From Mesostigma viride (lineage: Eukaryota > Streptophyta > Mesostigmatophyceae > Mesostigmatales > Mesostigmataceae): a stretch of DNA of 64,000 nt. Of this stretch, positions 6,492 to 62,221 are shown piece by piece (positions within the stretch are counted from its first letter, which is position 1; each line of letters begins with the position of its first letter). The stretch lies in contig RPFO01000629.1 in NCBI GenBank assembly GCA_009746045.1, positions 476,301 through 540,300 of the forward strand. Reading direction: 5' to 3'. Under the pieces are notes generated by a model. That model was not told the origin of the DNA. It ran no database searches and worked only from the letters and a program-made list of their open reading frames with translations. The position numbers were made by a program, and so were the translations under genes.

Positions 6492-7466
6492 ATTAATTAA
6501 TTAATTAATTAATTAGGAACATAACTCCGTTGGGAGTATATGTAGCACATAGCCCTGAGAAGGGGCATATGAGCCTATAATACATTCTAAGCTACTTCCT
6601 GCAAGGGTGGGAATGTAAACAACACTTGCTCTAGGGGCACCAGGGCACCCGCACCCTCATGGTCTATCACGCTATGCCCGGGTAAGGGGGGAGCATGCCT
6701 GTGAGGGGGAAGATCATCATGGCTATACAAGAGCGATGGCATGGCTTCTCAGCAGAGAGTGACTCCCTGCATGGGCACAACATTACTAAATAAGGCTAGG
6801 CATCGTCTGGAGTGTGGCACATCATAGGCACACATGTACATGATTAAATAAAGCGCGGGGCTTAGCTGGGATAGTGCCTCTAGGAGGCGTACATGTACAT
6901 GGCCACGGTCTAGCTATTCTGCACTACTACTGCTGTATTCCCCTAAGCTGGGGCGTCTGGAGTCGCTGGGGCCGCGGGGGGGGGGGGTCGCCTGCCAGGG
7001 CTTGTGGCCGACGTAGATGGCCGCCCCCTTCCAGTACACCGGCTGCCCCGCCTTGGTCTGCCGGAGCTGGAGGTAGGCCGGCCATAGCTCCCGTCGCCGT
7101 TGTTGCTGCGCCAGGGTCAAGTCGTCATCAAGGGTGAAGAGAGTCTTCTCGAGCCGCTTGCGGCGTCTGAGAAAAGAAATCTTGTCCGCCGGGGTCTTAA
7201 AGGTGAGGAGGAGCGGGGGCGGCCCTGCCTTACCCCGCGCGCGGGGAAGGCGGTGGGCAGCCAGCTCGATCTCACCGTTAAGGCCCATGCGACCAAGGAT
7301 TTCTCTCTCAAACGCACGCAAAAGCTTCTCGGAATTCTCACCTTCCTCCATCTTGAAGTTCTTGACAATGACGTTGAGGCTGCGCTTGGCGAGCTCGGCC
7401 TCCTCGCGGAGGTCAAGCGTCTGCCGCTGAAGCTGGGCTGCGACGGCGGAGGTGGTGGAGGTGGTA
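6492..7466 (-). mobile_element. HAL1-like ORF1-only element, 3' half, interrupted by PLE
   Basis: Read on the minus strand: the ORF1 C-terminal domain runs from 7466 down to about 6950. It shows RLPRARGKAGPPPLLLTFKT, DDDLTLAQQQRRRELWP and QPVYWKGAAIYVGHKPWQA. A 3' UTR of about 400 bp follows, then a terminal stem-loop (6520-6542), then a (TTAA)n tail at 6492-6515. No RT ORF lies between ORF1 and the tail, so this is an ORF1-only (half-LINE) structure. The coding sequence is broken at 7466 by the Penelope-like element and resumes at 12940. Confidence 0.75.
6520..6542 (-). other. 3' terminal stem-loop of HAL1-like element
   Basis: On the element's sense strand: CATA, bulged T, ACTCC, loop CAAC, GGAGT, TATG, immediately followed by the TTAA tail. 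The same fold with compensating base changes recurs at ten other 3' ends in the window (see findings). Confidence 0.7.
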
Positions 7467-8387
7467 TCAAAGAGACAACCAGCGCAGGCCAGAAATCGGG
7501 AGAATCCGGACCATGGTAGCTCGAGCCTGCCGTTATCTTTTCCGCGTTTTCGAGTCGTTCAGGATGATGAAGATGAATGGTGATGGAAATGTGTATCCTT
7601 GTGCATTGAAATTATGGCTGGCTTACGTGTGGAGCGACTAGATGACCTAGACGGTGGGGCCGGAAACAGCATGCTTGATCAGGGCGTGTGTTTCTAGCCT
7701 AACTGGCCGGGAGTGTCTAGTGGTGAGCACCATTGCTGCGATCGCTCTCCCACCATTTACGAGGAAATACCCGCAAATGGAAAACCACTGAAAAGGTCTA
7801 GCTAGTCAGTCATCACGTTAGCCATGCCATGATTCCAAACGTCCAAGAACTGCACACGGTGCAAAGGCAAAAAGCCGGAGGACAGCACTTTCAAATGTGC
7901 GGCGGGAACCAAAAGCCCGCGGATGCCAGAAAACATCGTGTTGCGGCAGCGACGCGACGATGTGGACAACGAATCCAGTGCCAAGCTCGGAACGGCCGCA
8001 AAGGAGATCTGGCATCACAGGGTTCAGATGTGCGGAGATACTATGCGATCCAGCCGGTCCACGACCTGTTTGTAGAGCTTGTGCCAAGGGGCAGCACCGA
8101 ACAGATGTGGGTGACGTTGCAAAAAACATCGGACTTGACGGAGCATAATGGCTCGGTCATAGTCTTTGACCAATAAACGCTGCAAGAGTTCAACAAGAGT
8201 CGTGATGAAATCAACACGATAAGAACAAAGACGGGAAAAACGATGTAACTGAGAAAGAACAACACCATATTTTGCTGTGTGGGAAAGGAGACTGTGAATA
8301 TCGGGGTAACGAATAAAAGGAATTTGCTGGTATTTAGGATCCTTGCGCTTATCATAGATAGCCGTACGCCAGCCCTTCTTGTTATGG
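7467..8387 (-). repeat. PLE pseudo-LTR, 3' copy
   Basis: Direct repeat of 12019-12939 at an offset of 4552 bp. It holds the last 121 codons or so of the ORF plus the 3' UTR. The 3' terminus, on the sense strand, is TTGTCTCTTTGA. This same terminus recurs at truncated copies near 46636 and 45400. Confidence 0.85.
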
Positions 8388-23780: not shown

Positions 23781-24020
23781 AATTTTTTAATTAAATAAAC
23801 ACGTGCTCCCGTTGGGGAGTCACGGAGCACCGAGGTGCTTTTAATCCCTGTGTGTGCACAACAGGAGAAAGGGCAGAGACCCCCAGTCTCCTTCATGCCA
23901 AAGGCATGCCACAGCTGCATTCGGGCGCGCTAGCTAAAAGGACATGCTACCGATCCGGCAAACTGTGGGTGCAATAAGACCCATGTGAGCGTGGCATAAC
24001 AAGTAGCGTGGGCAAGGAAT
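23781..24020 (-). mobile_element. LINE 3' UTR fragment (family C) with stem-loop 23802-23824
   Basis: The 3' end faces left with an AATT-rich tail (23760-23798) and the CGTG/CACG stem-loop. The body is repeated at 61768-62000 (GGTGCTTTTAATCCCTGTG, CAGAGACCCCCAGTCTCC, GGCAAACTGTGGGTGCAATA). No coding sequence. Confidence 0.6.
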
Positions 24021-24110
24021 TAAATTTAATTGTAATAATTAATTTATAAACTCGTGCTCCCGTTGGGGAGTCACGGAGTATTAACCCCGATGGATGGATT
24101 AATTCGCATT
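24021..24110 (-). mobile_element. LINE-A type 3' terminus with stem-loop 24053-24075
   Basis: AATT-rich tail, then the minus-strand 3' end shared with 51061 and 59071 (CTCGTGCTCCCGTTGGGGAG, then GTCACGGAG, TTAACCCCGATGGATGG). Very short truncated copy. Confidence 0.65.
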
Positions 24111-24157: not shown

Positions 24158-24910
24158 TTGCTCCCGCTCTTCGCTACTCGCCGACTTGTGGAGGAACTGC
24201 AATGCCTTCAGCCTGGTGAGTCCCCTTTGCACCTTGTGCTGGTGGACTTCATCAAAGCCTTCAATTCGGTTTTCTGGCCTGCGCTATGGGACATCCTCGA
24301 GCTGTTCCGGATCCCCCGCCCCCTTATTGCTGTCATCCGCAACCTGTATGAGGGGTCCACCACTTCGGTGCGCACTTCTTATGGGACCACGCCACCATGC
24401 CCTTTACAGAAGGGTGTGTGGCAGGGCTGCGTGCTGTCGCCCTACCTGTTCATTATTGTGGTCGAATACGTAATGATTCAGGCGCGCAAGCGATTTGCCC
24501 GCATCGTGGGTAGGGAACCAGGGGTGCAGGTTGCCAAGCACTTCTGGCATGGCGGAGCGGAAACGGAGATTCGGCTGGCGGACATCATCTATGCAGACGA
24601 CACCACCCTCCTCGAGGACACTGGGCACGTGCAGACATGGCTTGACTGCCTGGCTATCGAGGCCCGTGCAGTGGGGCTTGAGGTCAGCAAGAAGACAGAG
24701 GCCCTGGCGATTGGGCTCACCCACACACCGCCACCCCTCTATCTCCTTTACGGCTCTCGAGTCCTGTATCGGGACCGCGTCAAGCTGCTGGGCAGCCTGC
24801 TTCCCAGCTGCGAGGCTGATGTGGACCACCGCATCTCCCTCGCCTGCATGGCACGCTTTACGCCATTACCGGGCCCTATGGCGCAAGCGTGGACTTTTCG
24901 TGATATCTAG
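24158..24910 (+). pseudogene. Non-LTR reverse transcriptase fragment (LINE-A)
   Basis: The frame shows RT motif A as VDFIKAFNSVF (Asn where the usual sequence is FDSV), motif B KGVWQGCVLSPYLF and motif C IIYADDTTLL. A conserved thumb follows (HVQTWLDCLAIEARAVGLEVSKKTEALAIG). The typical product is an APE-type LINE ORF2. The N-terminal endonuclease is missing, and from 24889 the frame runs into inserted SINE-like sequence and stops. First codon is not an ATG. Dead fragment. Confidence 0.85.
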
Positions 24911-25488: not shown

Positions 25489-26657
25489 TTAATTAATTAA
25501 TTAATTAATTAATTAGGAACATAACTCCGTTGGGAGTATATGTAGCACATAGCCCAGAGAAGGGGCATATGGCCTATAATACATTCTAAGCTACTTCCTG
25601 CAAGGGTGGGAATATGTAGACAACACTCGCTCTAGGTGCACAGGGCACCTGCACCCTCATGGTCTATCACGCGCTATGCCCAGCTAAGGGGGAGCATGCC
25701 ATGTGGGGGAAGATCATCATGGCTATACAAGAGCTAGGCCGGGCATGGCTTCTCAGCAGAGAGTGACTCCCTGCATGGGCACTGCATAATTAAATAAAGC
25801 TAGGCATCATCTGGGGTGTGGCACATCATAGGCACACATGTACATATGAAGTAAAAAGGCTAGGCCTAAGCTGGTATAGTGCCTCAGTGTAGTAGGCGGG
25901 CATATAGGCCACTGTCTAACTATTCTACACTACTGCTGCTGTATTCCCCTAGGCTGGGGCTTCTGGAGTCGCTGGGGCCGCGGTGGTCGAGGGGGTCGCT
26001 TGCCAGGGCTTGTGGCCGACGTAGATGGCCGCCCCCTTCCAGTACACCGGCTGGCCCGCCTTGGTCTGCCGGAGCTGGAGGTAGGTCGGCCATAGCTCCT
26101 GTCGCCGTTTTTGCTGCGCCAGGGTCAAGTCGTCGTCCACGGTGAAGGGAGTGTTCTCGAGCCGCTTGCGGCGTCTGAGAAACGAAATCTTGTCCGCTCC
26201 AGGGGCTCTCAAAGATGAGAAGAAGCGGAGGCGCCCCGGCCTTACCCCGCGCGCGGGGGAGGCGGTGGGCGGTCAGCTTAACCACCTCTCACCAAGGAGG
26301 CCCATGCGTGCAAGGATTTTGCTCTCAAACGCACGTGCAAGCTTCTCGGAATTCTCACCTTCCTCACATGTCGAAGTTCTTGACGATGACGTTGAGGCTG
26401 CGCTTGGCGAGCTCGGCCTCCTCGCGGAGGTCAAGCGTCTGCCGTTGGAGCTGGGCTGCGGCGGCGGAGGTGGTGGAGGTGGTATGTTGCTTAAGCATGT
26501 CCGCCCAGGTCGTGATGGGAGGAGCATCGCCGGCCAGGCCAGCAGGGGCTGGCTTGGCGGCAATGTCCTTCACTGCCTGGGCGGTGAGGCCGGCGGTGTT
26601 CTGCAGGACCTCGATAGCGATAATATATATTTGCATTATCCTTGAGGCGCTGGTCGA
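25489..26657 (-). mobile_element. HAL1-like ORF1-only element, split by the 13.5-kb hAT-type insertion
   Basis: Minus strand: (TTAA)n tail 25489-25515, stem-loop 25520-25542, 3' UTR with the same blocks as 6540-6950, then the ORF1 C-terminus (PVYWKGAAIYVGHKPWQA, RRQELWPTYLQLRQ, LPRARGKAG) and part of the coiled coil. At 26657 it is interrupted; the reading resumes at 40161. Small indels break the frame near 26275 and 26365, and an AT insertion lies at 26618-26632. Confidence 0.75.
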
Positions 26658-40557: not shown

Positions 40558-43085
40558 CACGAAAAGTCCACTGCTGCTCATGTCCGGCCGCAACGAGGAC
40601 CTTTACCTTGGCATGCCATATATCACCAGCACCATTAAGGGGACTCGGCGCGGCGAATATTTTCCGCGCCAAAAAAATTCCGCGGTACCCTCCGTACCAT
40701 GAAAAGTGGGTGCACGGTGCGCGCACCCCTTGCGGAAGTGGCCATATGGCGACTGCTTTTAGACGAAACGTGACAAATCTGGCGCGCGGAAAGCAGAAAA
40801 AATGCTCGATTGTTGGAGAAAATAATTAGTTAATGATTCTACTCTATGGTGGGATGGTTGCGATCTATAATGTCGCGGGCTTTTTTTCTTTACCATCGGC
40901 AGGGGGGGTCCGGCCTGAATTTATGTCGGGATGAATAAAGTATAATGGATGCCTGCCGGTGTGATTGTCCATTGTTGCCAGTTTTGATGGTCGTAAGAAA
41001 AGCTAGTTTAATGATGTTTCTAAAGCCGTAAAAATTCCCGCTGCTATCTTTACCTTTCCCGTCATTTTGCGGTAAGATAACATTAGGCCTGCGCGATGCG
41101 CGCCCGACCTCTCCATGAAAGGGTGGCCTTTCTTGTGCGCCTGGGCACGAATAAATGCCCGCTATGGTACGTTCTTGTATTAAACGTCTTAAGCTAGCGT
41201 TTTCCTGCTTTCTTAGCTCGTTGAGCGTAAGCTTTTTGCCTTCTTTCCGGCCAGATGCTGCCAGGAAGTTGCGGGTCCTGGCGCTGCATCGCTGGATTCA
41301 TGGATGGCTTTTAGCAAGTTCGTCTGTGATGTGGCTGGCTTGCTGAAGCGCGTGGCCCACAACCTGGCGGGAAGGTGTAATGCTTTTATTTCCATGCTTC
41401 TCTGAAATTTCTTTTGCTTTATAGACAGTTGTGTTCGAGGAAATTCACGCGGTCTTCCTAAGCAGCGGCATCATTTTCCCCAGACAGTGACGAGCTGGCA
41501 CCTGTCTCCTAAAGAAAGTGGCTCGTGCTTGTTAGAAAGGAGGCAGTGTGCATTTTGCGGGACACAATGCTTTGGTGGCACATGCGTCAGGTAGGTTGTT
41601 CCAATGGTCTCTTCACCTTTCCCACTGAGTAAATGATAGCCTTTGTCATGCTAACCAGAGCAGCTAGCCACAGGTTGGCTGGATAAAAAGTCAGCTTATT
41701 TTCTCTTTATATACTGCGTGTGTGGTCCTCCACATGTCCGGCTTGTTGGGCATTTTGGAACAGGCCGGGTTTTTAATGTGTTGTTGGGTGGAACAACTTG
41801 GTTGTTGGCACAAAATCACACATTATTAGCCTGAGATAGGCATGACATATGCTGCTCAGGCGTGTCGTCCTACCAGCCTTGTTGTTAAGGGTAGACTCAC
41901 AAGGCTGGCTGTGCCGATGGAGGGGTGGGGTGTATGACGCTCCGGACATCCTCCTCACACTCCGTGATCAAAGTGGGCATGTTTTGGGTGTCTAGGGTAG
42001 CAAAACAGATGTCATTTTGGCTCAGCACTAGCTCAATTCTCTTTTAGCGTCTACCCAGGTGGCATCACAGGAAAATCAATAACTTGAGCTACGCTTGTCA
42101 GAATGAGCTCAAACTTTGGGGTTGTGTTTCCCCCCACTCAGTGGAATTTCGCATGTATGGATGACCCCATTCGATGTGTTGATGATTTGATTTTTTTCTA
42201 TTGGCTCAAAAAAGTACCCATTTTGCGGGGAAATTAATAACTCAAACAAATGTGATTATTTTGACCATGTGAGTAGCCCAGATTTATTAGAAGTGGGGGA
42301 ACTTTGCAGGAATGTATGGGCAGGTCATTTGGATAAGTGGTTTGTCTTGGGCAAAATATCTCATAAATAGCGTCTTTTTCTATTTTTAGCTCGCCACCGG
42401 TGCGTGGTTGGGGGTAGTACCCCCAACAAGTGGTGGCATGAATGTCCAAACATCATATTTATGGTACTCAATCATCACTAGATGGTTCCCAAGTGCATTG
42501 GAACTGATATTCATTAAAGTTAGTTTTTCAGGCTTTTCGGGACGTGCGAGTCACAGCAGCGCTCGGCGCCTGCAGCTCGTAGGGCATCGACCTAGCTCGC
42601 ACCAACCAGGTAGACACCTCACGTGGCCCCCCCGCGGGACTGCGACCAGCTCAGCCTGGCCGGCACCTCCTGACGTGCGCCGGGCCCCGTGACTATGTCA
42701 GTTAGACGCCGCAAGGCCCGCGCGCACCTTCAAAGAACAGCTAGTAGAGGACATGGGGGGCCTAGGCCTCTCCGTGATTTGGAATAAGATGATGGACAAG
42801 GCCAAGTGGGCCCAGGTCATAGAGCACAACGAGCCCCCCCCCGTGGGGAAGCGCCCGGCACGTGTGCGGCAAACCGACCCGCGGGAGGCATGCCAGACAG
42901 CGGCTCCCGGCCTAGGGTAGCGTGATGTTGTTTAGATAGATGTTGTAGTTAGTGATGTGGTTTAGATAGATGTTGTAGGTAGCTGATGTAGATAGATTAG
43001 ACCGGTAGGACTGTTTGCACCCATCCATCCATCCATCGGGGTTAATGCTCCGTGACTCCCCGACGGGAGCACGAGTCTAATTAAC
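40558..43085 (+). mobile_element. LINE-A 3' part, interrupted by the 1.9-kb TTAA element
   Basis: 40558-40638 encodes the RT C-terminal segment LYLGMPYITSTI. After the insertion, 42553-42920 encodes the conserved tail (TFKEQLVEDMGGLGLSVIWN, KMMDKAKWAQVIEHNEPPPV) with frame breaks. Then come a 3' UTR, stem-loop 43051-43073 (loop CGAC) and TAATTAA. Non-functional. Confidence 0.75.
40635..42552. mobile_element. 1.9-kb TTAA element, second copy
   Basis: Highly similar to 2144-4053 throughout. Its left TTAA (40635-40638) is the TTAA of the LINE-A sequence ACCATTAAGCAGCG. At the right end the element stops at GACGTGCGAGTC and a few bases of TIR and duplicated TTAA are lost. Confidence 0.85.
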
Positions 43086-45602: not shown

Positions 45603-46176
45603 GTTTTGATACATTTAGATATGGTCAGCTTGACTAGAGAGTGTTTCCACACAGATGGGGGGTGCCTCTTCTTAATTTTACTTGGTAGTTTGCAGGATCC
45701 TGCGTTGGTCCTTTTTTGGGTCCCAAAAATTTTCCCTCTCTTTGGTACCCTAGCAATGCGTCCCTCTCATGGGGTCATCGCGTCATTCGGTTGGCGGAAG
45801 GCTTTTCCTTCAACCATTATTTAAGTGAGAAAACTATTCCTGGAAGATTTGTAGTTGTCTCGCTTCAATATTTGGGAGACCAGCATAGGCCTGATGACCT
45901 GACACCCCCTGTATATATTAAAAATATAATGACTAACAGCAGAGTGAAATCACTCAAACCAAAGCAAACGCCCAGCTATAAACCTATATACAGAGCCATG
46001 TCAAAGCTCTATACTACGATAAGACCAATGGAAACGCCTAACGGGAGGAACCTAATAGCCCTGCTGCACCGCAAAAGCAGCCCGCGTACGGCGGAGCATG
46101 ATGTCAGCCTATATGGCGAATAAACGCGCCTCGACGCAACGCAGCCTGGCGGCTGCGCTCGGCAATGAAAATACGT
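45603..46176. other. No gene recognised
   Basis: ORFs at 45600-46123 have no recognised domain and mostly lack support. Nothing else seen. Confidence 0.4.
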
Positions 46177-46636
46177 GCCGCGGGCTTTTGGTTCCCGCCG
46201 CACATTTGAAAGTGCTGTCCTCCGGCTTTTTGCCTTTGCACCGTGTGCAGTTCTTGGACGTTTGGAATCATGGCATGGCTAACGTGATGACTGACTAGCT
46301 AGACCTTTTCAGTGGTTTTCCATTTGCGGGTATTTCCTCGTAAATGGTGGGAGAGCGATCGCAGCAATGGTGCTCACCACTAGACACTCCCGGCCAGTTA
46401 GGCTAGAAACACACGCCCTGATCAAGCATGCTGTTTCCGGCCCCACCGTCTAGGTCATCTAGTCGCTCCACACGTAAGCCAGCCATAATTTCAATGCACA
46501 AGGATACACATTTCCATCACCATTCATCTTCATCATCCTGAACGACTCGAAAACGCGGAAAAGATAACGGCAGGCTCGAGCTACCATGGTCCGGATTCTC
46601 CCGATTTCTGGCCTGCGCTGGTTGTCTCTTTGATAC
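46177..46636 (+). mobile_element. 5'-truncated PLE copy (3' UTR only)
   Basis: Reverse complement of about 7467-7923, nearly identical. It ends at 46636 with the 3' terminus CTGGTTGTCTCTTTGATA, directly followed by ORF1-only coding sequence. Confidence 0.85.
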
Positions 46637-46703
46637 GTCTGCAGCTCAGGCTGCAGCTCCGCCATCAGGTCCGGCAGGCAGCGGTGACACTAGTCGTGCA
46701 CTG

Positions 46704-47927
46704 GTGGTCGTCCAGCAACCTCCCGGGCTTAACGCCTCGCCATCTGCATCGCCTGACCCCAAGCGCACCCGCTCAGCCGACAAAACAGGAGGGTCCTCCC
46801 GCCCCTCAGAACCGAGCTTTCGGCAACTGCCTTTCATGGCCACTGATTACGACTGGACCAACCCGTCTCCGACCGATGCTATGAGATGCATCTTCTTCGG
46901 GGACTACGCTTCGCTTTACGACCTGTGCCTCCATCTCCACGAGAACAATCGCCTCATCCTCCCGGACGGCCGCCTCTGGCGACACCTCACCCTGCTGCCC
47001 GGGTGCAAGCGCCCCGAACTCCAGCACGCCATCCTCAACTCCCTTCTCAAGCGCTCCGACGGCGAGATCTGGGCTCCTTCCATCTCCGCCCCCACACTCC
47101 GTTCCATCCTGACGGAAGCCTTCCAGCAGCACGTGACCCCCCTTGCTGCCGACATTTCAGCAATCGGCGGCACGCTGACTGCTGAACTTCCTCACATTTC
47201 CACCGCCGCCGCCTCCACCTCCACCGCTGTTTCCGCCTTCACTGCCGACATCAAAGCCCAGCTCCTCGACCTCGACCAACGCCTTCAAGCCACCGCCACC
47301 GCCCTTGAGAGCTTGCATGACACCGCCGGCCTCACCGCCCAAGCGGTGCAGGAAATCGCTGCCCAGCCGGCACCTGCTGGCCCGGCCAGTGATGTTCCCT
47401 CCACCTGGGCGGACTTGCTTAAGCATCACACCACCTCCACCACCTCCACCATCGCGGCACAACTCAAGCAACAAGCCCTCGACCTTCGCGAGGCGGCCGA
47501 GCTCGACAAGCGCAGCCACAATGTCATCGTCAAGCACTTCGACCAGCCGGCAGGTGAGACCTCCACGAGTCTCCTTGAGGCAGTTAAGCGCGCCATTCTT
47601 GCCCCCATGTTACTCACTGGTGAGCTGGACATGTCGGTTGTCCGCCTCCCCCGCGCGCGGGGGAAGGCTGGCCCGGCACCCGTGCTCCTCACCTTTAAGT
47701 ACATGACGGACAAGCTGGCGTTCCTTAAATGCCGCAAGAAGCTCTCGGAGACTCGCTTCACGCTGGACGACGACTTGACCTTGGCCCAGCAACAGCGGCG
47801 ACGCGAGCTATGGCCGACCTACCTTCAGCTCCGGCAGCGTGCAGGGGGGAAGCCGGTATACTGGAGGGGGGCGGTCATCCACGTTGACCACAAGCCCTGG
47901 CAGGCCCCTCCTGCCACTCCAGGCTAG
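46704..47927 (+). CDS. LINE ORF1-type RNA-binding protein
   Basis: 407 codons from a GTG; the frame is open further left to 46637 without ATG, so the true N-terminus is probably lost to the PLE fragment. Order: low-complexity Pro/Ser region (1-45), a conserved N-terminal block (MATDYDWTNPSPTDAMRC..., 45-135), a long heptad-rich coiled coil (about 140-280, AAELP, LDQRLQATATALESL, EAAELDKRSHN), then an RRM/CTD-like domain. That last domain shows HNVIVKHFDQP, SLLEAVKRAIL, RARGKAGPAPVLLTFK and DDDLTLAQQQRRRELWP. ORF1 proteins of LINEs coat element RNA and chaperone target-primed reverse transcription. No RT is encoded downstream. Confidence 0.75.
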   Translation: MVVQQPPGLNASPSASPDPKRTRSADKTGGSSRPSEPSFRQLPFMATDYDWTNPSPTDAMRCIFFGDYASLYDLCLHLHENNRLILPDGRLWRHLTLLPGCKRPELQHAILNSLLKRSDGEIWAPSISAPTLRSILTEAFQQHVTPLAADISAIGGTLTAELPHISTAAASTSTAVSAFTADIKAQLLDLDQRLQATATALESLHDTAGLTAQAVQEIAAQPAPAGPASDVPSTWADLLKHHTTSTTSTIAAQLKQQALDLREAAELDKRSHNVIVKHFDQPAGETSTSLLEAVKRAILAPMLLTGELDMSVVRLPRARGKAGPAPVLLTFKYMTDKLAFLKCRKKLSETRFTLDDDLTLAQQQRRRELWPTYLQLRQRAGGKPVYWRGAVIHVDHKPWQAPPATPG

Positions 47928-48368
47928 GGAATATACCAGTAGTGTAGATTAGATAGGCTTAGCCTTGCAAGTGGCCCACGCGCATGTGCGCCCATAATGG
48001 CCCCCATGGATGATGCTTTCAGTATCTAGCCGCGCCCAGCCTACAATGGGACCTCCCATGGATGATGCATTAAGAATTTAGCCATGCTCTGCCTATGCAG
48101 GGAGTTACTCTCTGCTGAGATGCCATGTGTACACCAGCTATAGCCTAGCCACATACCCTCCACCCCATATGTCATGCAGGCCTTCTAGGCCCTCTCCTCA
48201 AGCCCCCCCTGGATGCCTGTGCTTGTTAAGGAGGCATGAACCATCATGGCGGTGCAGGTGCACCTTGTGCACCCAGAGCAGGTGACAGTTGTACATCCTC
48301 CACCTGCAGGTTGTAGCCCTGATTGTATTACAAACCCATAGATGCCCCTTTCTCAGGGCTATGTGTTA

Positions 48369-48391
48369 CATATGCTCCCAACGGAGCTATG
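48369..48391 (+). other. 3' terminal stem-loop of HAL1-like element
   Basis: CATA, bulged T, GCTCC, loop CAAC, GGAGC, TATG. Relative to the 6520 copy the first upper pair is G-C rather than A-U, a compensating change. Confidence 0.7.
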
Positions 48392-48402
48392 ATTTTAATT
48401 AA

Positions 48403-50245
48403 TTAATTAATGATGTCAGCCATGGCCCGAGTCAGCGCCACCGACAAGCGCTGACGCCAATATGACGTCCAGGTCCGCGCCGACCATGGGGCCCGCTGGC
48501 CCTCCAGGTCCAGCCGGTCCTCCCGGAGCCGGCAACACTCCTTGAAGAAGGCGGAGGTCAGGGGCCCCATGGCCCCAAACTCCTCCAGGACAAAGGGCAC
48601 CACACGATGGTGCCCGACGGCACCGTAGGCCAGGAGCTTGGCCCGCTCCGCCCGGTCCGCCGTGTAACCTGCCGTGAGGGAGGCCCCAGCCACGTGGCTA
48701 AGAGCCATGCAAGGGCCGCGCCACCGAAACGTCAATAAGCAGATGCCGGCCACCCCCCTCAAAGTCCAGCACCACGATGTCAGGCCGGTGGTTGGGGGAA
48801 TAGAAGGCAGCGCCATCCGCATCCTCGGACCGGATGTTCGCGTGGGGGAAAACCGACCGAATCATGGCGAGCACCACCGTCAGGAGGACAGTGTGCAAAT
48901 ACAAATACCAATTCTGATTCTGTTGGCCCCCCATGCAGGCAAGGTAGTGAGTCCCCGTGGGATCCAGCGGCTGCCCACAGCTACCACAAGGCCGCCCGGC
49001 CGGAACAAGAGGCTGCGGGGCAAATAGCTGGTGCCGGAGCGCCACCGAGTAGTGGCTGGGAGCCAAGGCGAATGGGGGGCCATGGGAAGAGCACGAAGGT
49101 ACGCCGAGCCCACACTCCGCAAGGAAAGCGAGAACAGCCACGCACGTCCCTGGGCGTTGAGGTCCGCAAAAAGAGCAATCCAATCAGCCGTGTGCAGAAT
49201 ACCCGCGTAGGTTTTCTGGTGTTTATCGATGACGCGAGCAGGGAATGCGGCGGGAGATTGAACGGAGGCGACCGAGGGAGTGCCGCGAGGGAGGTGGCGC
49301 TGTACCGCCTGAGCGGCACGGACGGGAGAACAGGCCTGCTGGATCTCAGCATAGGCCTCCTGGATGGCGGTGACGAAGGGCAAAGGGCTGCTGGGGTCCA
49401 GGAGGTCAGGCGCTGCCGTTGCCAAAAGGGGCAGGAGCCGGCAGCTTTCCGCCCACGACTGAGCGACGGAGCCCAAAAATGCTGCTGGGGCCAGCCGGGC
49501 GGCACGAGTCAGACCGCAGCCACCCATCCGTGCAGGCAGGGAGGCAATGCGAATAGCATGTGGCGGGAGGTCGGGGCCCGGGACCAGCTGCGCCAAGGCC
49601 GACTGGATGCGTTCGTCGTGGCCCTCGGCGGCCAGCCGGACCTGAGCCGGAAGAGCGCCCCGGAGCCAGTGAACGACGCGAGGGTGAGCGCAAAACCACA
49701 GAAGCAGACCCGTGGTCTGCGAATCATGAAGGCGCGCAATCAAGGGCAGTACCTCAGTGCGTGCCTCGAGGGCGGCCCGCAGAGCATCGATGACAAACGC
49801 GGGGTCGCCAACCGGAACGCCGAGGACATCCAACCCATGGAGGCGCTCGTCCCGGCCCAAGAGCTGGGGCGGAAAGCCGGAGCAATCACCTGGGGGCGAG
49901 TACACCGCGCACTTGGCCAGGGTCAACTGGAGGTGGATGTCGGCCACCGCGGTCTGCAGTGCCAGCAGAGCCGCGGTGGTGTCCGGCACAGGGCCCAGAA
50001 GGTAGATATCATCCAAGTAGGCCTGAATAGCGACCGCCGGGTGGGCAGCATGGACCGCTTGGAGGCAACCCTGGAGGGGGGCGGCAAAGTACAGGGGTCC
50101 CAGGGGGTCCCCTTGCTGGGTGCCCGACCGCGACAGCAGGCCGCCGCGAGTGCCGTCCTCCATGATGTGAACCAGTTGGCCGGGCTGGCCGTAGCACACG
50201 GCTGTCCAAGCGTACAAGTCCTCGAAGGACTCCATGACGGCCCCC
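48403..50245 (-). pseudogene. RLE-type non-LTR retrotransposon ORF, 5' truncated and frameshifted
   Basis: Minus strand: RT motif B SGTQQGDPLGPLYFA, motif C AYLDDIYLLG, a thumb and linker, then a zinc knuckle CGSCGQPLDPTGTHYLAC (Cx2Cx9Hx3C). A restriction-like endonuclease follows (RPDIVVLDFEGG...LLIDVSVARPL) and a conserved tail (AKLLAYG, VPFVLEEFGAMG). This layout fits the RLE LINE groups (R2/CRE/Utopia-like); the exact clade is not certain. The frame shifts once at about 49000-49060 and again near 48720, so no single product exists. It ends MADIIN-stop inside the TTAA tract shared with the neighbouring ORF1-only element. Confidence 0.8.
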
Positions 50246-50394
50246 TGTATATATATGCAGCACTTCATATGCAGCAGTGCTGCATGAACGTCGATCGCGT
50301 GTGTTGAAGTGTAAAAATTTGGGTAATTTAAAGAACTCATTGTCTACGTATGGATTGTCTACCTGTTGAGCATGACATAACTCACATATGATTT

Positions 50395-51025: not shown

Positions 51026-51360
51026 CAATTAATTAATTAATTAATTAATTTTAATTAATTAGACTCGTGCTCCCGTTGGGGAGTCACGGAGCATTAACCC
51101 CGATGGATGGATGGATGGGTGCAAACAGTCCTACCGGTCTAATCTATCTACAACAGCTACCTACTACGTCTATCTAGAGCTATCAACATCAACTCTACCG
51201 GCCTAGGGGAGCTGTCTGGCGTGCCTCCCGCGGGTTTGCACACGCGGGCGCTTCCCCACGGGGGGGGGGGCTCGTTGTCCTCTATGACCTGGGCCCACTT
51301 GGCCTTGTCCATAATCTTTTTCCAAATCACGCTATCTCAATAGATCTGCTCATCAGGCCA
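51026..51360 (-). mobile_element. LINE-A 3' end
   Basis: Tail 51026-51060, stem-loop 51066-51088, 3' UTR, then C-terminal ORF2 codons (GKR, EDNEPPP, MDKAKWAQV) interrupted after AKW...IWK. 5' truncated at about 51340-51360. Confidence 0.75.
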
Positions 51361-54235: not shown

Positions 54236-54362
54236 TCGTATGCGGATAGCATTTCCACCTCCATTCATGCGTTCCCGCCATCATCTTCAGTGAACGACTT
54301 GACAAGCGGTTGAAGCCACCATGGTCCGGACTCTCCAGACTTCCGGCCTGCGCTAGTTGTCT
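54236..54362 (+). mobile_element. Divergent PLE 3' end
   Basis: ATTTCCACCTCCATTCATGC, CACCATGGTCCGGACTCTCC and GGCCTGCGCTAGTTGTCT align with 46515-46630. Confidence 0.55.
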
Positions 54363-54369
54363 TAATTTT

Positions 54370-55153
54370 AGTTGTCTAATGGATGGTCCGCGGCCGACGC
54401 CGACACCCCTGCCACTGATGCAGCGCAGCCGACCCCGCTGGGCTGCTGCGTGGCACGCAGCAGGCCCTCACCTCTGTTGTGCAAGGTGCTCAAGCTCAAG
54501 TCCATGCAATGATGGCTGCCGCAGCTGTGCTGCAACCCAAGCCACCTTGCTGTCCAGAATTAAAGGCGGCCATGGCCACCTCCCCCCCCAAGCGGGTCAC
54601 GTTCGCGGACGTGGCGCGGCCGCGCGGGTAACAATTTGGATGCCCTTGCAGTTGTGTCACAAAATGTGGCTCAGCTCAGACAACGCAAGATCATCCTCAA
54701 GAACTTTGAGGTGGGAAGGCATGACACCGCACAAGCGCTTACCGAGGCCTTGTGGGGGCCCACGTTCCTGGGGGTGCTGCAGCTGCGCGCCATGCACCAC
54801 GTGACCATTGACAGGGCCATTCGCCTGCCAGGCCCAGCTGGCCTGGTTCTGGTCACCATGGCCACGGTGAACGACCAGAAACGGCCGTCATTGGAGCCCG
54901 TCGCCTGCTCAAGGACACCCCCATCAGCATGGGCGAGGACTACACCCCGGCACAGCTGGCGGCGAGGAGCAAGTCACTGCTGGAATCACGAGCAGGTGGT
55001 GGTGGCACGAGCCGGGTACGTACCGGGTACGTACCGGGGGGAAAGCGTGTGCAGCTGCGACTGTCGCCGGATGGTCGTTTTGGTGCTTACCTGGGTGGTG
55101 TCCGTGTAGACACCGACAACGCGGAGACAGAGTCTCGTGACAAGCAGCTCTAA
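54370..55153 (+). pseudogene. LINE-B ORF1
   Basis: Frames carry KIILKNFEVGRHDTAQALTE, then RLPGPAGLVLVTMATVNDQK and, after a shift near 54895, SMGEDYTPAQLAARSKSLLE and GKRVQLRLSPDGRFGAYLGG. The order of the RRM-like core and a DYTPAQ/R-rich end parallels DDDLTLAQQQRR in the ORF1-only family. The N-terminal part is scrambled by frameshifts. It would bind LINE RNA if intact. Confidence 0.55.
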
Positions 55154-55589
55154 GGTAGAGTCTCGTCACAAGCGTGCTGCCTCTGGTGGCGGTGCCATGC
55201 AGTAGGTAGACAACTCTACTCGTCGGCTCCGAGCGCGACGCGGCTATTACAGGCTTAATTCGGGGCCGGACAGCCTCTAATTAAATTAATAGTTCCCCGT
55301 TCCACTACCATTCATCGACCTAGTCGACTGTCAGAGACACATTGTGGTGCCGGTATCTCGGGCTCGAACGACAGCTCTCAGCAGTAAGATAAGCAACACA
55401 CCGGCAACGCATGCTAGATTTTCTACTACGCCTCTGCGTTGCACAATCATCCCCGAATACCCAGAGCAGGCGGCAGTCCTTCGCCTGCAGGACAAGCTCC
55501 ATGCGTGAAAAGCCACTATTCCCCCATTTCCCTCCCCTCCGTTCCATCCCCACCCCCACCTTCCGCTGCATCCACCCCCATGATCAGTT

Positions 55590-58500
55590 CCCCCATCGTC
55601 CTTCTCCCCTGTTGGGCCAGCAGGCATCGATCCTTGGCCCTCGCGACTTTCAACGTACGTACAATGCTAGCAGATGGCGATCATATAATACTGCTACCGG
55701 GCGGAGGAGCTCGTTGCCTTTTGCATTTCACATCGTGTGTCTATTCTAGGCCGGTGCAGGAGCATCGTCGCACGGTGCCATCTCAGTCTGGCACGGTGCG
55801 CACTGATCGCCTGGCCGGCGGTTGGCGTTTTTACTTCAGGCAGTGGGACGCCAGGCCAAGGTGGTGTTGGCCTTTTGTGTTCGCCGCTGGCAGCTGCCAG
55901 CCTCAGCGCGCTTAAGTTTCTTACCCCACGCCTTTTGGTGGCACATTTCACCTCATGCAGTTGAGGGGCGGTCTAAGCACCACCTCACGGTGGGGGTGGG
56001 TTACGCACCCCATACTGTAGTGGTCTAACCCAATGATGCAGTTGGAATGCCAGAAGTTCTTCGAGGACTTGCATAACCTTGAGCGGGGCCACCCCGGCCC
56101 GCCACTTCTTGCATGGTTATTATGCTGCTCGACGCCAATGCCACGCTCCCCGTGGGCACTGCTGGCAGTTGCTTTGCGCCTGCCGGCACGGCTGCTAACG
56201 ACAACACCTCCTTGTTTTCTGCCTTTTTGTGGGATTATTAGCGGGATGGTTGCTGTCAACTGCCACTTAATCCAACGTCCCTCACAGGACTTGGTCACTT
56301 TTCGGGGCCGGCTAACGACCGTCAGGCCTGTCTGGACTATGTGGTCGTACGGCAGCCCAGGTGCCACTTCGGTCCTGGATACTCGAGTGTTCGACCCATG
56401 CACCTATACAGTGTGCTCTGACCACCAGTTGGTGCGTGCCGACCATTCGGCTCCGCTTCCACGCCCCCAAGCGCGCCGCGCCCCATGCAGTGGCACGTCC
56501 TGACTGGTCTCGGCGCTACTGACGCCCGGTCCGAGGGGATCCTGCATGAGGACTGGACGGAGGCCGAGCACGAGCGGAACCGGTGCCGCCGGGCCGTACC
56601 TGGAGGCCCTGGACGCCCAGGCGGACGTCGCCGCGCTGGCCCAGCCGGGGTCAGTGCTCCCAATTAACGCTGCCATTTTTGCGGGCTTTGCGGCCCGCGC
56701 CCCGTTGCTGGCGGCCCGGCACCTGCCGTTCATGCCCCGCCGCCGCCCCGGCCCGCTCTACCGCCAGGACCCCAAGTTAGGTTAAATAGTGCCGGAACCT
56801 TTTGCCCACTGAGGCAAATCGGTCCGAACCTAACTCCCCAAGGTCTTGGGCGCCCGGCACCGCCTCAAGTGTAGTATAGCCGGGACCCGCTGCTGAAACC
56901 GGTGCTCACGGCCGCCCGCTAATTGTGGAGGCCTACGCACATGCTCAGGACGCAGAGGCGGCCCAGTGCATCGCAGATGCCAAGGCCTGCCAAGCTCGCA
57001 ACCAGGGCAAGGACATGTGGTACCACCTCGACCGGCTCGGCGGCCGGCGGCAGCGCACCCCGCGGTGGAGCACACGGGGGACGGCACGGCGCCGGTCAGC
57101 CTTTACCGCTGGTTGGCCAGCCCACAATGCCGGTTTCCTTGACACTGAGGTGGGGCTCGCGCCGGCCCCTCCGCCGGCCCACCGCTTCAGTCACCCCGAG
57201 ACGGCCGCCCGTCTCGGTGTTGGCCGGACCCCCCCCGCCGCCTGCGCCCCCCTCCTCAACCGCGGACTACCAAGTCCCCGCCTTGCAGGAGGGCTGCCTT
57301 GCCACCAGGCGGCGTCGTCCACCCCTTCACTTTGAGGGAATTGAACGGCACCCTTGCTCGCCTGCTGCGGTACGACGCGGCGGTCGGGGCCAACCACCTT
57401 TCGGCTGCATGAGCTGCTGAAGACCCCTGGCCCGGCGGTGAGGGAGCTTCTGCTGGCGTTCTGCAACCGTGTCCCGCTCTCTGATGAGCCTCCGCCTGCT
57501 GAGTGGCAGACGGCCATCCGGCCGCCGGAGTCATGCTGTACAAGAAGGGTTCTGCTGCGCTGACCCCGGTAACTATCGGGGTGTCTGCCTCCATGCAGAG
57601 CGCCGCGCTGAAGGTCTTCATGCGCATGATGCATGCTGCACAGGCTCCGCGCCGCACTGGGCCCACACCTGGGTGAGTATATATCAAGGCCTTTGACACG
57701 GTCCTATATAGTGGGAGGCTCTTTGGGCCATCCTAGCTCTGGATTGGGTATACCACCAGCGTTTATTGCTGCGCCGGCTTTCTAGCCATTCGTCGACTGT
57801 ATGAGGGCTCACAGGCAGTATAGTGCGTACTGCGGAAGGCACCACCCCATGCACCATTCCCCCTTCGATCACCACGGGGTGTGCAGTCCTGTCCCCATAT
57901 ATCTGTTCATTATTGTCGTGGATCACATCATGCGTCGGGCACGTGCGCGCTTTACCGCTCTTATGTATATAAGGGGTTCAAGCCCGGCTTGGACATCCTT
58001 AACGAGCCGCGAACACGGCGGCGTTGTCCCCGGCTACCGCCTGTCCGACCTGATTTATGCGGATGACACCACCGGCCTGATCGCGCGCCCCGAGCACATT
58101 CAGACCTGGCTGGACTGTCTGGGCTTGGAGGCGAGGGCGGTGGGGTTGGAGATTAGTGTCAAAACTGAGGCGATGGTGATTGGGGCTTCCAGTCGCCCCG
58201 CGCCTCTGCTGCGGCTGCTAGACGGGACGGAGATCCCATTCCGTCATCGCTTCAAACTGCTGGGGAGTATGCTCCCCGAACCGCCGACGATGTGGACACC
58301 CGCATCGGCCTGGCCTGGGCTAGGCATCGTTCGCTCAAAACCTACTGGCATTCGAAGGCCCTCGGCGAGCACCGCGCAAGCGCATGCTCCTCAAGGTCCT
58401 GGTCCTCACGGTGCTCACCTACATATGGAGCCGAGGCATGGACGCTCACGGACACGCTGACCGCCAAACTAGACGGCACGGTAACCAGGATGCTCCGTCA

Positions 58501-58980
58501 CGGGCCCTGAATGTAGGGTTTTCCACGCATAGATCTTTAGATACTTTGTATACCAGGGTGCCCATGCCTCGCATTTCGGACGAGATTAGACAGCGTAGGA
58601 TAGCATTCGTAGTATGTATCTTGCTCGCACCAGCCAGGTAGACACCGACCTCGGTCTGGCCGGCCCCCAGCGGCTTGGCCAACCAGGGCGGCATATCTTG
58701 ACCTGGCCTGGCCCCAAGGACATACCTAAGAAGGTAGGCAAACATGTCATGACCTAACCACAGCAGTTGCTGGCCGACCTACTAGTGGTCCCAGCCCCGT
58801 TTGAACATCGCATTCACTCCCTCTCTCTTGCTTGGACTGGCAGCTATGCAGAATTACAAGAAGAGGTGGAAGACGATTGTCCAGGCTCATACGCCAGCCC
58901 CTGTGGGCAAGCGCCCCCCACCCAAGAGGAAGGGGCGCTTCAAATGCTGAGAAGAATAGTTAGGCTGTTAGGGTGTTCTA
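55590..58980 (+). pseudogene. LINE-B ORF2: APE endonuclease + reverse transcriptase, frameshifted
   Basis: Endonuclease marks: ATFNVRTMLADG (55644), an E-containing QEHRRTVPSQSG (55768) and a C-terminal DHQLVRAD (56420). The linker is KACQARNQGKDMWYHLDRLG. RT marks: WQTA...RR then DPGNYRGVCL (57560-57590), motif A degraded near 57690, YLFIIVVDHIMRRAR, motif C LIYADDTTGLI (58050) and IQTWLDCLGLEARAVGLEIS. At least six frame changes and a block loss near motif A make it a dead copy. It is close to LINE-A in the thumb region. Confidence 0.8.
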
Positions 58981-59046
58981 GATTAGAGTAGCTTAGAGTT
59001 AGTTCGGTTTCGCGGCTTTGCCCACGTACCTCCATCCATCCAGCAA

Positions 59047-60900
59047 GGGAATTAATTAATTAATTAATTAGACTCGTGCTCCCGTTGGGGAGTCACGGAG
59101 CATTGACCCCGATGGATGGATGGGTGGGTGCAAACAATCCTACCGGTCTAAGCTATCTACATCTACCTACGGCATCTATCTAACAGCATTACTACCTATA
59201 CAACATCTATCTATATAGCACTGGCGTGCCTCCCACGGGTTTGCACACGCGGGCGCTTCCCCACAGGCGGGGGCTCGTTGTCCTCTATGACTCTGGGCCC
59301 ACTTGGCCTTAATTGTCCATCATCTTCTTCCAAATCACGGAGAGGCCTATAGGCCCCCCATGTCCTCTACTAGCTGTTCTTTGAAGGTGCGGGCCTTGCG
59401 GCGTCTAACATCACTGGGCCCGGCCCACGTCAGGAGGTGCCGGCCAGGCTGAGCTGGTCTCAGTCCTGCGGGGGGGGCCACGTGAGGTGTCTACCTGGTT
59501 GGTGCGAGCGAGGTGCCCTACTAGTAGCTGCAGGCGTCGCTGCTTAATGGTGCTGGTGATGTATGGCATGCCCTGGTACAGGTCCTCATTGCGGACATGA
59601 GCAGCATATCCTACTCTGAAAATGGAACGCAGCATGTTGGTGACCGCGCCGTCCAGCTTGCGGGCCAGCTCGGCGGTGAGGGTCCACGTCTCGGCCCCAT
59701 ACCGCGTGAGAACAGGAAGGACGAGGACCTTGAACAGGTCCTGTTTCTCGATCCTGCCGGCAGGGGCTTGCGCCACAGGGCCCGGTCCTGGCGTAAAGCG
59801 TGCCAGGCGAGGGAGATGCGATAGTCCACTATCAACCTCGCAGCTGGGGAGCAGGCTGCCCAGCAGCTTGACGCGGTCCCGATACAGGACTCGAGAGCCG
59901 TCGAGGAGATAGAGGGGTGGCGGTGAGTGGGTGAGCCCAACCGCCAGGGCCTCTGTCTTAATTCTTGCTGACCTCAAGCCCCACAGTCTGCACGGGCCTC
60001 GATATAGCCAGGCAGTCAAGCCATGTCTGCACGTGCCCAGTGTCCTCGAAGAGGGTGGTGTCGTCTGCGTAGATGATGTCTGCCAGCCGAATCTCCGTGT
60101 CCGCTCCGCCATGCCAGAATTTGTTAGCAACCTGCACCCCTGGTTCCCTACCCACGATGCGGGCAAATCGCTTGCGCGCCTGAATCATTACGTATTCGAC
60201 CACAATAACTGTGAACATGCAGGTAGGGCGACAGCACGCAGCCCTGCCACACACCCTTCTGTAAAGGGCATGGTGGCGTGGTCCCGTAAGAAGTGCGCAC
60301 CGAAGTGGTGGACCCTTCATACAGGTTGCGGATGACAGCAATCAGGGGGCGGGGGATCCGGAACAGCTCGAGGATGTCCCAAAGCGCATGCAGGCCAGAA
60401 AACCGAATCGAAGGCTTTGATGAAGTCGATCCACCAGCACAAGGTGCAAAGGGGACTCACCAGGCTGAAGGCGTTGCAGTTCCTCCATGCACCAGTCGGC
60501 GAGTAGCGAAGAGCGCCTGTACTGTGTTGCGACCTGAACGGAAGCCGTGCTGAGTCTCGCTGAGATGACCGTCCAGGCCGGGCCGTGCGCAGGCGGTTCA
60601 GGATGAGCCGCATAAGAAGCTTGAGGGGGGCACTTTGAATGCACACCCCTCTGTAGTTGCCGGGGTCAGCAGGCTACCCCTTGTTCTTGTACAGCATCGT
60701 GCGAAAACTGTGTTGCCAGGCCGCTGGAGGTGGTTGCGACGACAGCAGAAGGCGGTTGCAGATGTCCCGGAAGAGCAGCATAACACCTGTGTCCTCGAAT
60801 TCGGCTGCAAGTTTTACAACTGCGGCAGGAATCTCGTCATGCAGAGCCGGTGGCTGCGTCATAACGCAGGCGCTGGACCGCCTTCGTGACCTCGCGAGAG
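59047..60900 (-). mobile_element. LINE-A, 5'-truncated copy with RT
   Basis: Minus strand: RT from about 60890 (AAWQHSFRTMLYKNKG, DPGNYRGVCIQSAPLKLLMR), a broken motif A near 60420, QKGVWQGCVLSP region frameshifted near 60240, and motif C IIYADDTTLFEDTGHVQTW (60060). Then come the C-terminal GYAAHVRNEDLYQGMPYITS, the 3' UTR, stem-loop 59075-59097 and tail 59047-59070. No endonuclease. Several frameshifts, so inactive. Confidence 0.8.
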
Positions 60901-61047: not shown

Positions 61048-61290
61048 CATGATCTCCCAACGGAGTCATGTTATAATTTAATTCAATTGAACTGATGGTC
61101 CAAGAGGATCAAAGCCCTGGGCGCTTTGCTGAGTAGAGTAGCTACTGAGGATTTTTGTAGCTTAGATTATTAGCTAGCTTAGAGTTAGCTTAGTTGGTTT
61201 TCGCGGCTTCGCTGTACCCCCACCCATCAATGGAATACGTGCTACATGATCTCCCAACGGAGTCATGTCATAATTTTATTTTTTTTAGTT
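61048..61290 (+). mobile_element. Two LINE 3' ends with stem-loops
   Basis: Stem-loops CATGA-T-CTCC-CAAC-GGAG-TCATG at 61048-61070 and 61245-61267, each followed by AT-rich sequence (TTATAATTTAATTC, TCATAATTTTATTT). 61095-61235 resembles the LINE-B 3' UTR (58940-59040). Confidence 0.65.
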
Positions 61291-61710: not shown

Positions 61711-61752
61711 TACTAATGTGCAAACCAAAGGGGATGTTAACCCGTATTTTTC

Positions 61753-62221
61753 TAATTAATTAATTAAACTCGTGCTCCCGTTGGGGAGTCACGGAGCACC
61801 GAAGTGCTTTTAATCCCTGTGTGTGCACTACAGGAGAAAGGGCAGAGACCCCCAGTCTCCTTCATGCCAAAGGCATGCCACAGCTGCAATCGGGCGCGGC
61901 TAGCTAAAAGGACAGGCTAACGATCCGGCAAACTGTGGGTGCAATAAGACCCATGTGAGCATATCATAGCAAGGAGCGTGGGCAAGTAATCTGAACATAG
62001 CCAGGGCGTAGCATGGCTGTACTAGGACTAGGCTAAGGCTATGGCTGGTTGTGTACCGTGCGTTGGCGGCACGTGACTAGGTGTGTTGGCACAGACAGCT
62101 AGGCAACAGTCTAGGCATGGCTGCCTTAGCGGCAGTGACGCCAATGGTTACAAGCTAGGGCTATTATTCTAGCCCGCTGGGGGCGTCCACATCTTGTGGT
62201 TGATCATCAGGTCCCCGCCCC
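61753..62221 (-). mobile_element. LINE 3' end (family C), second copy
   Basis: TTAATT tail, stem-loop 61771-61793, then the family C body seen at 23820-24020. 62000-62221 is not otherwise identified. Confidence 0.6.

What the first reader, a model, noticed from the sequence alone, without database searches (positions are those of the whole stretch)
6492..61793. A shared 3' stem-loop with covariation ends LINEs and RT-less half-LINEs alike
Eleven retroelement 3' ends carry the same fold on the sense strand. It has a lower stem, a single unpaired base on the 5' side, an upper stem built on CTCC/GGAG, a CAAC loop (once CGAC), then usually a (TTAA)n tail. Positions: 6520-6542, 23802-23824, 24053-24075, 25520-25542, 43051-43073, 48369-48391, 51066-51088, 59075-59097, 61048-61070, 61245-61267 and 61771-61793. 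Pairs change together: lower stem CATA/TATG, CATGA/TCATG or CGTG/CACG; upper stem ACTCC/GGAGT, GCTCC/GGAGC or CTCCC/GGGAG. The bulge (T or A) keeps its position. Surrounding UTRs are largely unrelated. In eel UnaL2 and related LINEs the RT recognises a 3' hairpin followed by short tail repeats; here the same hairpin also ends ORF1-only copies, implying trans-mobilisation.
Basis: partly seen in the sequence, partly recalled or inferred. Interest (0 to 1): 0.88.

Follow-up and report, generated by a model that had tools for sequence, protein, structure and literature searches.

The report
Shared tail hairpin of split LINEs
In this genome jumping genes that make a copying enzyme and jumping genes that make only an RNA-coating protein look almost unrelated except for the same small RNA hairpin at their tail, which is probably the tag by which a copying enzyme recognises them both.

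Summary
In detail: all 11 hairpins are in place with 9 of 9 pairs. They are three sequence types on four 3'UTR families, not 11 independent cases. Genome-wide the core CTCCCAACGGAG occurs 13,688 times against 21 for the reversed control. Stems covary while the loop persists: pair 4:20 is standard, in five types, in 96 of 100 copies; 38 variants score 0.434 against 0.186 for shuffles. Between families the UTRs are unrelated beyond about 12 nt. Upstream lies ORF1 for hairpins A and B2, an endonuclease-RT LINE for B1, either for C. ORF1 matches human LINE-1 ORF1p by fold (weak model). Half-LINE A and LINE B1 share only their last ~34 nt; duplications flank copies of both. Best reading: a stringent-type 3' tail recognised by ORF2p, ORF1-only elements being mobilised in trans, as for TRE5-A.2, HeT-A and HAL1; binding is inferred. 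Boldest reading: a reciprocally split LINE.

The parts
6520..6542 (-). 3' hairpin, type A (CATA/TATG), ORF1-only element; tail runs down from 6519
6983..7465 (-). ORF1 fragment (67% aa identity to the 46704 ORF1) of the A element whose 3' end is at 6520-6542; cut by the Penelope-like element at 7465
23802..23824 (-). 3' hairpin, type B, 3'UTR family B2
24053..24075 (-). 3' hairpin, type B, B1-like UTR (partial); no coding match upstream
24158..24910 (+). fragment of LINE B1 reverse transcriptase (RVT_1, E 5.8e-15), used as genome query
25520..25542 (-). 3' hairpin, type A; ORF1 remnants at 25988-26636 (-)
43051..43073 (+). 3' hairpin, type B with CGAC loop, UTR family B1; LINE ORF2 C-terminal remnant upstream
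46098..46109 (.). 5' copy of 12-nt target-site duplication ATGATGTCAGCC
46110..48409 (+). half-LINE A: ORF1-only element bounded by duplications, interrupting a minus-strand RT gene; holds a nested Penelope-like fragment at 46178-46636
46704..47927 (+). ORF1, 407 aa, predicted coiled coil - RRM - CTD; best fold matches are human LINE-1 ORF1p (low-confidence model)
48369..48391 (+). 3' hairpin, type A (CATATGCTCC CAAC GGAGCTATG), then (TTAA)n
48410..48421 (.). 3' copy of the 12-nt target-site duplication
48880..50340 (-). RT of a different element; its C-terminal coding part continues below 46098, beyond the half-LINE (read by eye; an unbroken copy in L014 reads the same way); no CTCC/GGAG hairpin at its 3' end
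51066..51088 (-). 3' hairpin, type B, UTR family B1; ORF2 C-terminal remnant upstream
54310..59052 (+). decayed LINE C: ORF1-like remnant (about 54310-55150, inconclusive), endonuclease-like remnant read by eye (about 55439-56500), RT remnant (57801-58460: 52% over 126 aa to RT24158 by tblastn, no Pfam match of its own), 3'UTR
59053..60898 (-). 5'-truncated LINE B1 (RT) inserted in LINE C just before C's hairpin; 11-nt duplications AGCAAGGGAAT at 59042-59052 and 60899-60909
59075..59097 (-). 3' hairpin, type B, of that LINE B1 copy
61048..61070 (+). 3' hairpin, type C: 3' end of LINE C (a first piece of it is left at 60910-60926, split off by a ~120-nt insertion)
61245..61267 (+). 3' hairpin, type C, second copy (truncated element)
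61771..61793 (-). 3' hairpin, type B, UTR family B2; no coding match upstream within the window

Best explanation
The hairpin is a cis-acting 3' tail signal in the RNA of a group of L1-like non-LTR retrotransposons. The endonuclease-RT protein (ORF2p) of LINE B1 and its relatives (LINE C) recognises the hairpin, probably by its fixed CAAC loop, closing C-G pairs and one 5' bulge, begins target-primed reverse transcription on the adjacent (TTAA)n repeats, and leaves 9-16 bp duplications. ORF1-only elements (families A and B2, A coding an L1-type ORF1p) carry the same tail and are copied in trans by that ORF2p. Shown here: anatomy, covariation against shuffles, copy numbers, element classes, some duplications, intact frames. 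Inferred: binding by ORF2p, the features it reads, slippage on TTAA, trans mobilisation.
For: 13,688 exact cores against 21 control; 11,374 against 3. Stems vary together with the loop fixed: 96 of 100 copies keep a standard pair at 4:20, in five types, and 2 of 100 have a double change at 3:21 (CAGA/TCTG). On 38 distinct variants 92.7% of cells pair, against 79.4% in shuffles and 33.6-48.5% in slid controls; covariation score 0.434 against 0.186 sd 0.019, 0 of 500 shuffles. Between-family UTRs: 42 of 45 pairs have z below 4; within families A, B1, B2 all 7 pairs have z above 21. Class association with fixed distances: A to ORF1 440-476 nt in 11 of 13, B1 to the ORF2 end 109-155 nt in 13 of 15, B2 to ORF1 378-487 nt in 4 of 4. 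LINE B1 copy with a 1181-codon frame, Exo_endo_phos and RVT_1, then the hairpin. ORF1: 102 matches scored of 21,537 candidates, 100 without a stop inside; RT: 150 scored of 12,773, most without. ORF1 fold: the 9 best PDB matches are human LINE-1 ORF1p. Duplications at element ends for A (window 12 nt, L030 16, L032 11, L034 9) and B1 (window 11, L042 11). Six of six fetched top ORF1 copies end in hairpin A and tail. The only nucleotide match of half-LINE A to LINE B1 with E<0.01 is the terminal 34 columns.
Against: No binding or retrotransposition test. The shuffle control does not remove relatedness, and two of its five measures are not exceptional (pairs with both-side change 6 against 4.9, 41 of 500; further pair types 15 against 13.8, 141 of 500). 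13 of 100 copies are a C variant with T.T at 6:19 unless the bulge moves. L040 breaks the class association twice and one C hairpin follows ORF1. Only 18 of 68 hairpins gave a duplication candidate of 10 nt or more, several of them in simple or other repeats; 50 gave none. Another LINE (in L019) ends in (CTTA)n with a different hairpin and the RT element at 48880 has none, so several RTs exist and B1 is not proven to be the partner of A. The ORF1 model is poor (mean pLDDT 46) and its matches have low TM-scores (0.17-0.19 by query for the nine). Two of three within-C UTR pairs show no similarity.
Confidence: 0.8

Rival explanations
1. The hairpin is a 3'-end processing or transcription-termination signal shared by these elements, not an RT recognition site.
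For: It lies at the 3' end in every family; a stem-loop can act so. A terminator scan made for bacterial sites scores it as terminator-like at 48374.
Against: It is copied into the genome together with a (TTAA)n repeat that follows it, which fits a tail used at reverse transcription. It is held by bodies that are otherwise unrelated. A fixed loop with free stems is the pattern of stringent LINE tails (PMC4176376, passages).
Confidence: 0.12
2. Plain shared ancestry: one ancestral tail kept by descent, covariation no more than family history.
For: Few family-level events; the core is nearly invariant; ~12 nt upstream and the tail are also shared; mutual information is also high at 5:20 and 6:20.
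Against: Between-family UTRs are otherwise unrelated, so the hairpin is kept while the rest turns over; both-side changes with kept pairing at six of nine pairs.
Confidence: 0.06
3. The palindrome acts as DNA, for instance as an insertion target or transposon end.
For: In the window a B1 copy and a ~120-nt insertion sit in or beside the LINE C hairpin.
Against: In the bounded copies (six ORF1 copies, the window B1 copy, L042) the hairpin is at one end only, on the coding strand, and duplications lie outside the tail.
Confidence: 0.02

Closest known systems
Stringent-type LINE/SINE 3' tails: eel UnaL2, zebrafish ZfL2-1 and ZfL2-2
   Same: 3' stem-loop followed by short repeats; loop recognised specifically, stem generally; a single bulged base matters in UnaL2 (PMC4176376, passages; tail repeat of UnaL2: PMC3747384, passages)
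   Different: ZfL2 elements are L2-clade LINEs and UnaL2 has SINE partners; here loop CAAC, tail TTAA and coding ORF1-only partners. B1 was not placed on a tree; its PDB matches (RT part) are a 'Reverse transcriptase-like protein' (8gh6, R2 as recalled), LINE-1 ORF2p and R2 proteins
Plant L1-clade LINE/SINE tail (LINE1-1_ZM with ZmSINE2 and ZmSINE3)
   Same: L1-clade element, ~50-nt common tail with putative hairpin, compensatory stem changes, conserved loop (PMC3747384, passages)
   Different: Partners there are SINEs; loop UCU
Dictyostelium TRE5-A.1 / TRE5-A.2
   Same: Variant lacking ORF2 is mobilised in trans by ORF2p of the full element (PMC5633606, passages)
   Different: TRE5-A.2 is a variant of TRE5-A.1 and inserts by tRNA genes; here A and B1 bodies are unrelated apart from the tail
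Drosophila HeT-A with TART/TAHRE
   Same: Abundant element that lacks the enzymes and has Gag; [quoted passage not shown]
   Different: Telomere-specific; TART has its own gag; no such hairpin in the passages read
Mammalian HAL1 (half-L1)
   Same: Encodes only ORF1p, arose several times (PMC5753468, passages)
   Different: A derivative of L1; poly(A) tail with relaxed recognition (recalled for HAL1; stated for L1 in PMC3747384); here no common sequence with LINE B1 but the tail

Membership tests
Stringent-type LINE 3' tail | 3'-terminal hairpin directly before short tandem repeats | tested here: met
Stringent-type LINE 3' tail | Structure conserved by compensatory change, loop conserved | tested here: met
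   against shuffles and slid pairings; no tree-aware test
Stringent-type LINE 3' tail | Tail shared by RT-bearing LINE and non-autonomous partner | tested here: met
Stringent-type LINE 3' tail | Retrotransposition or RT binding requires the hairpin | not testable with these tools
   needs a cell or in vitro assay
UnaL2 / L2 clade | RT belongs to the L2 clade | not tested
   no RT tree built; PDB matches are of R2 and LINE-1 type
ORF1-only (half) LINE | Intact L1-type ORF1, no RT in the element | tested here: met
   6 of 6 fetched copies L029-L034, their 5' ends vary; fold match from a weak model
ORF1-only (half) LINE | Marks of target-primed reverse transcription (duplications, 3' tail) | tested here: met
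   4 of the 6 copies have a duplication at the element ends, 1 sits in a TAAG array, 1 gave none
ORF1-only (half) LINE | Derived by deletion from its partner LINE | tested here: not met
   against LINE B1 only the last ~34 nt match; not tested against an intact LINE C
SINE | Short, non-coding, RNA-gene-derived head | tested here: not met
   the elements code for ORF1 or RT; ARAGORN found no tRNA in the window
Reciprocally split LINE (ORF2-only partner) | Full-length LINE B1 lacks ORF1 | tested here: inconclusive
   the L042 copy starts at 2139 beside an 11-nt duplication, 112 nt before the first in-frame ATG, with no ORF1 match upstream; 39 of 39 other scored copies match from that base (40 scored of 444), but that start is set by the query copy itself

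The most novel reading that the evidence does not exclude
A reciprocally split LINE: an ancestral two-gene element has come apart into ORF2-only elements (B1, ~3.8 kb, endonuclease and RT; 12,773 first-look candidates for its RT, mostly unscored) and ORF1-only elements (A, 1.84 kb without its nested Penelope-like piece, and B2; 21,537 first-look candidates for ORF1), which keep each other mobile through one common RNA tail. ORF1p would then be a shared good supplied in trans, a two-segment retrotransposon.
Probability: 0.4. Interest if true: 0.8.

Novelty: new variant of a known kind. Interest (0 to 1): 0.62.

Why it matters
How an RT picks its template, and whether ORF1p works in cis or in trans, are open questions for L1-type elements. 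Here one genome offers over ten thousand natural copies of one 23-nt signal on unrelated bodies, with RT and ORF1-only carriers, so loop, bulge and stem rules can be read off and tested with few constructs. If ORF1 and ORF2 really sit on separate elements, it is a natural test of trans supply of ORF1p.

Tried and rejected
Rejected: the adjacent RT (48880-50340) as partner of half-LINE A; one family with UTR homology; half-LINE A as a deleted LINE B1; the L019 'ORF1 then RT' order as proof of a two-ORF LINE B1 (it is LINE X inserted in an A-type ORF1); SINE; Rfam family (0 matches at gathering score). Led nowhere: ORF1 against PDB by sequence and Pfam (nothing above cut-off); LINE C ORF1 remnant against ORF1 (28% over 130 columns, E 0.47); L043 partly masked (N), no hairpin found in it; organism not identified. 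ORF1 dN/dS against diverged copies, 28 stretches: 0.23 to 0.87, 20 of them 0.41-0.61; decayed copies bias it.

Full report
Observation. The 11 hairpins exist as written, and the core search of the window found no twelfth. Read on the sense strand they are three types: A CATA-t-RCTCC-CAAC-GGAGY-TATG (3), B CGTG-a-CTCCC-CAAC-GGGAG-CACG (6, one with CGAC) and C CATGA-t-CTCC-CAAC-GGAG-TCATG (2). By their 3'UTRs they form four families, A, B1, B2 and C.

Abundance. The window lies in a 440-Mb genome of 2,243 contigs. The 12-mer CTCCCAACGGAG occurs 13,688 times, 21 times read backwards; with the core and the outer C and G fixed and nine positions free, 11,374 against 3. One search lists its first 100 places, all on contig C1, so the sample is of one contig and of types A and C only.

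Covariation. In those 100 (26 distinct), pair 4:20 is A-T 39, G-C 38, C-G 7, T.G 7, G.T 5, other 4; pair 3:21 is T-A 95, G-C 2, other 3; pair 2:22 is A-T 98, G.T 1, other 1; pair 6:19 is a standard pair in 82, with T.T 15 the main exception. Mutual information is highest at 4:20, 1.09 bits; 5:20 (0.79) and 6:20 (0.70) are also high, a sign of family structure. On 38 distinct variants (26, 12 from fetched loci picked by likeness to the types) 92.7% of cells pair, against 79.4% in shuffles and 33.6-48.5% when slid; 56 cells change on both sides against 18.8; covariation score 0.434 against 0.186 (0 of 500). The number of pairs with both-side change (6 against 4.9; 41 of 500) and of further pair types (15 against 13.8; 141 of 500) are not exceptional, and the A/B upper-stem difference may be one indel. 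The shuffle control ignores relatedness, so I call the structure well supported, not proven by a tree-aware test.

Not one UTR. Eleven representatives were compared over -250 to -13. Of 45 between-family pairs, 42 have z below 4 and the highest is 5.1; the 7 pairs within A, B1 and B2 have z from 21.8 to 183; of three C pairs one has z 20 and two near 0 or below. What families have in common is ~12 nt (TGTGCTA, or ATGCTC/GTGCTC), hairpin, spacer and TTAA tail.

What carries it. For 68 hairpins in deduplicated loci (L003, L029, L037 dropped as overlaps) the nearest upstream same-strand coding match within 1.5 kb was scored; opposite-strand matches were not scored. A, 24: ORF1 13, RT 2, beyond another hairpin 4, none 5. 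One of the two RT calls (window 25542) is an artefact: that query begins with non-RT sequence, and ORF1 remnants lie further up; the other is L040. B1, 18: ORF2 15, none 2, beyond another hairpin 1. B2, 11: ORF1 4, RT 1 (L040), none 5, beyond 1. C, 14: RT 2, ORF1 1, none 8, beyond 3. One B unassigned: RT. The sample is biased: L001-L008 came from an A/C core search, L030-L034 from an ORF1 search, and L035, L036 and L038-L044 were chosen for RT. In loci not chosen for ORF1, A has 8 ORF1 calls; in loci not chosen for RT, B1 has 9 ORF2 calls.

ORF1-only elements. The window ORF1 (46704-47927) has 102 scored matches of 21,537 candidates; 100 of the 102 have no stop inside. All six fetched top copies (one is the window copy) run ORF1, ~450 nt, hairpin A, (TTAA)n, other DNA. 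Duplications at the element ends: window 12 nt, L030 16, L034 9, L032 11; L031 sits in a TAAG array; L033 none found. Over all 68 hairpins a mechanical search gave 18 candidates of 10 nt or more, of which I take five as placed at both element ends (window 48369, window 59097, L030, L032, L042); others lie in repeats or were not followed up, and 50 hairpins gave none. The model of ORF1, from three window sequences, is weak (mean pLDDT 46; 55-70 over most of the C-terminal part) but shows long helices, then an RRM-like and a CTD-like order of elements; the nine best PDB matches are human LINE-1 ORF1p, best E 2.1e-5, with low TM-scores.

RT elements. LINE B1 RT: 150 scored matches of 12,773 candidates, most without stops. 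L042 holds a 1181-codon frame with Exo_endo_phos (E 1.7e-6) and RVT_1 (E 1.4e-25), then a B1 hairpin at 5898. The insertion is bounded by ATATGTGCAGA at 2128-2138 and 6547-6557, the latter after a second B1 hairpin (6502), so its 3' end holds a duplicated UTR with A-type sequence between. It starts at 2139, 112 nt before the first in-frame ATG. The sequence upstream (L042:1700-2115) is another repeat: the 39 other places scored (40 of 1,538 candidates) match it only to 2115 and do not go on into B1. So this copy has no ORF1. In the window, LINE B1 (59053-60898, minus, 11-nt duplication) sits in the 3' end of LINE C, whose hairpin is 61048; LINE C is decayed and its ORF1-like remnant is inconclusive.

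Same tail, unrelated bodies. Half-LINE A (1,841 nt without the nested Penelope-like piece) against LINE B1 (3,802 nt): the only match with E<0.01 is the last 34 columns (85%, E 0.002), hairpin and tail.

Mechanism. Shown: anatomy, covariation against shuffles, class association, duplications. From published work (PMC4176376, passages): ORF2p of stringent LINEs binds the 3' stem-loop, loop specifically and stem generally, and a bulge matters in UnaL2. Inferred: ORF2p of B1 (or C) binds this hairpin and copies A and B2 RNA in trans. Against a single universal tail: LINE X in L019 ends in (CTTA)n with a different possible hairpin, and the RT element cut by the half-LINE has no such hairpin.

Known and new. 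Elements without ORF2 or RT moved in trans are known (TRE5-A.2, HeT-A, HAL1, passages), as is an L1-clade tail with a covarying hairpin shared with SINEs (passages). I found no report of ORF1-only and RT elements joined by such a hairpin in the listings of eight paper searches of an open-access library; most subscription papers are missing there.

Noticed in passing
window 7465-12939 (-): Penelope-like element by eye (1018-aa frame 8024-11080; GIY-YIG-like N-terminus and RT motifs are recalled, no Pfam match) with a 923-bp perfect direct repeat (7465-8387 = 12017-12939), inserted into a half-LINE A copy; its 3' piece also sits at 46178-46636 in the other half-LINE.
   Followed up: partly
L019:600-3110: LINE X: RT 49% identical to RT24158, ends in (CTTA)n after a different possible hairpin (CTTGCG/CGCAAG, by eye); inserted in an A-type ORF1.
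   Followed up: partly
window 60927-61046: About 120-nt insertion that splits the LINE C hairpin, with an 8-nt duplication (aCATGATC), by eye.
   Followed up: no
L016:9224-9354 (-): Only the first ~130 nt of LINE B1 joined directly to a TTTAATTAATTA tail: perhaps an internally deleted copy without hairpin.
   Followed up: no
L042:5898-6546: LINE B1 3'UTR, hairpin and tail present twice with an A-type fragment between, inside one pair of duplications.
   Followed up: partly
window 6500-6570 (-), 23785-23850 (-): A and B2 tails have a second predicted hairpin just upstream (GCCC..GGGC; AGCAC..GUGCU).
   Followed up: no
window 31480-32500 and 52300-53200: Long simple arrays: 21-nt and 8-nt repeats, and a long TTG/CAA triplet tract seen as poly-Leu on + and poly-Gln, -Asn, -Thr frames on -.
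   Followed up: no
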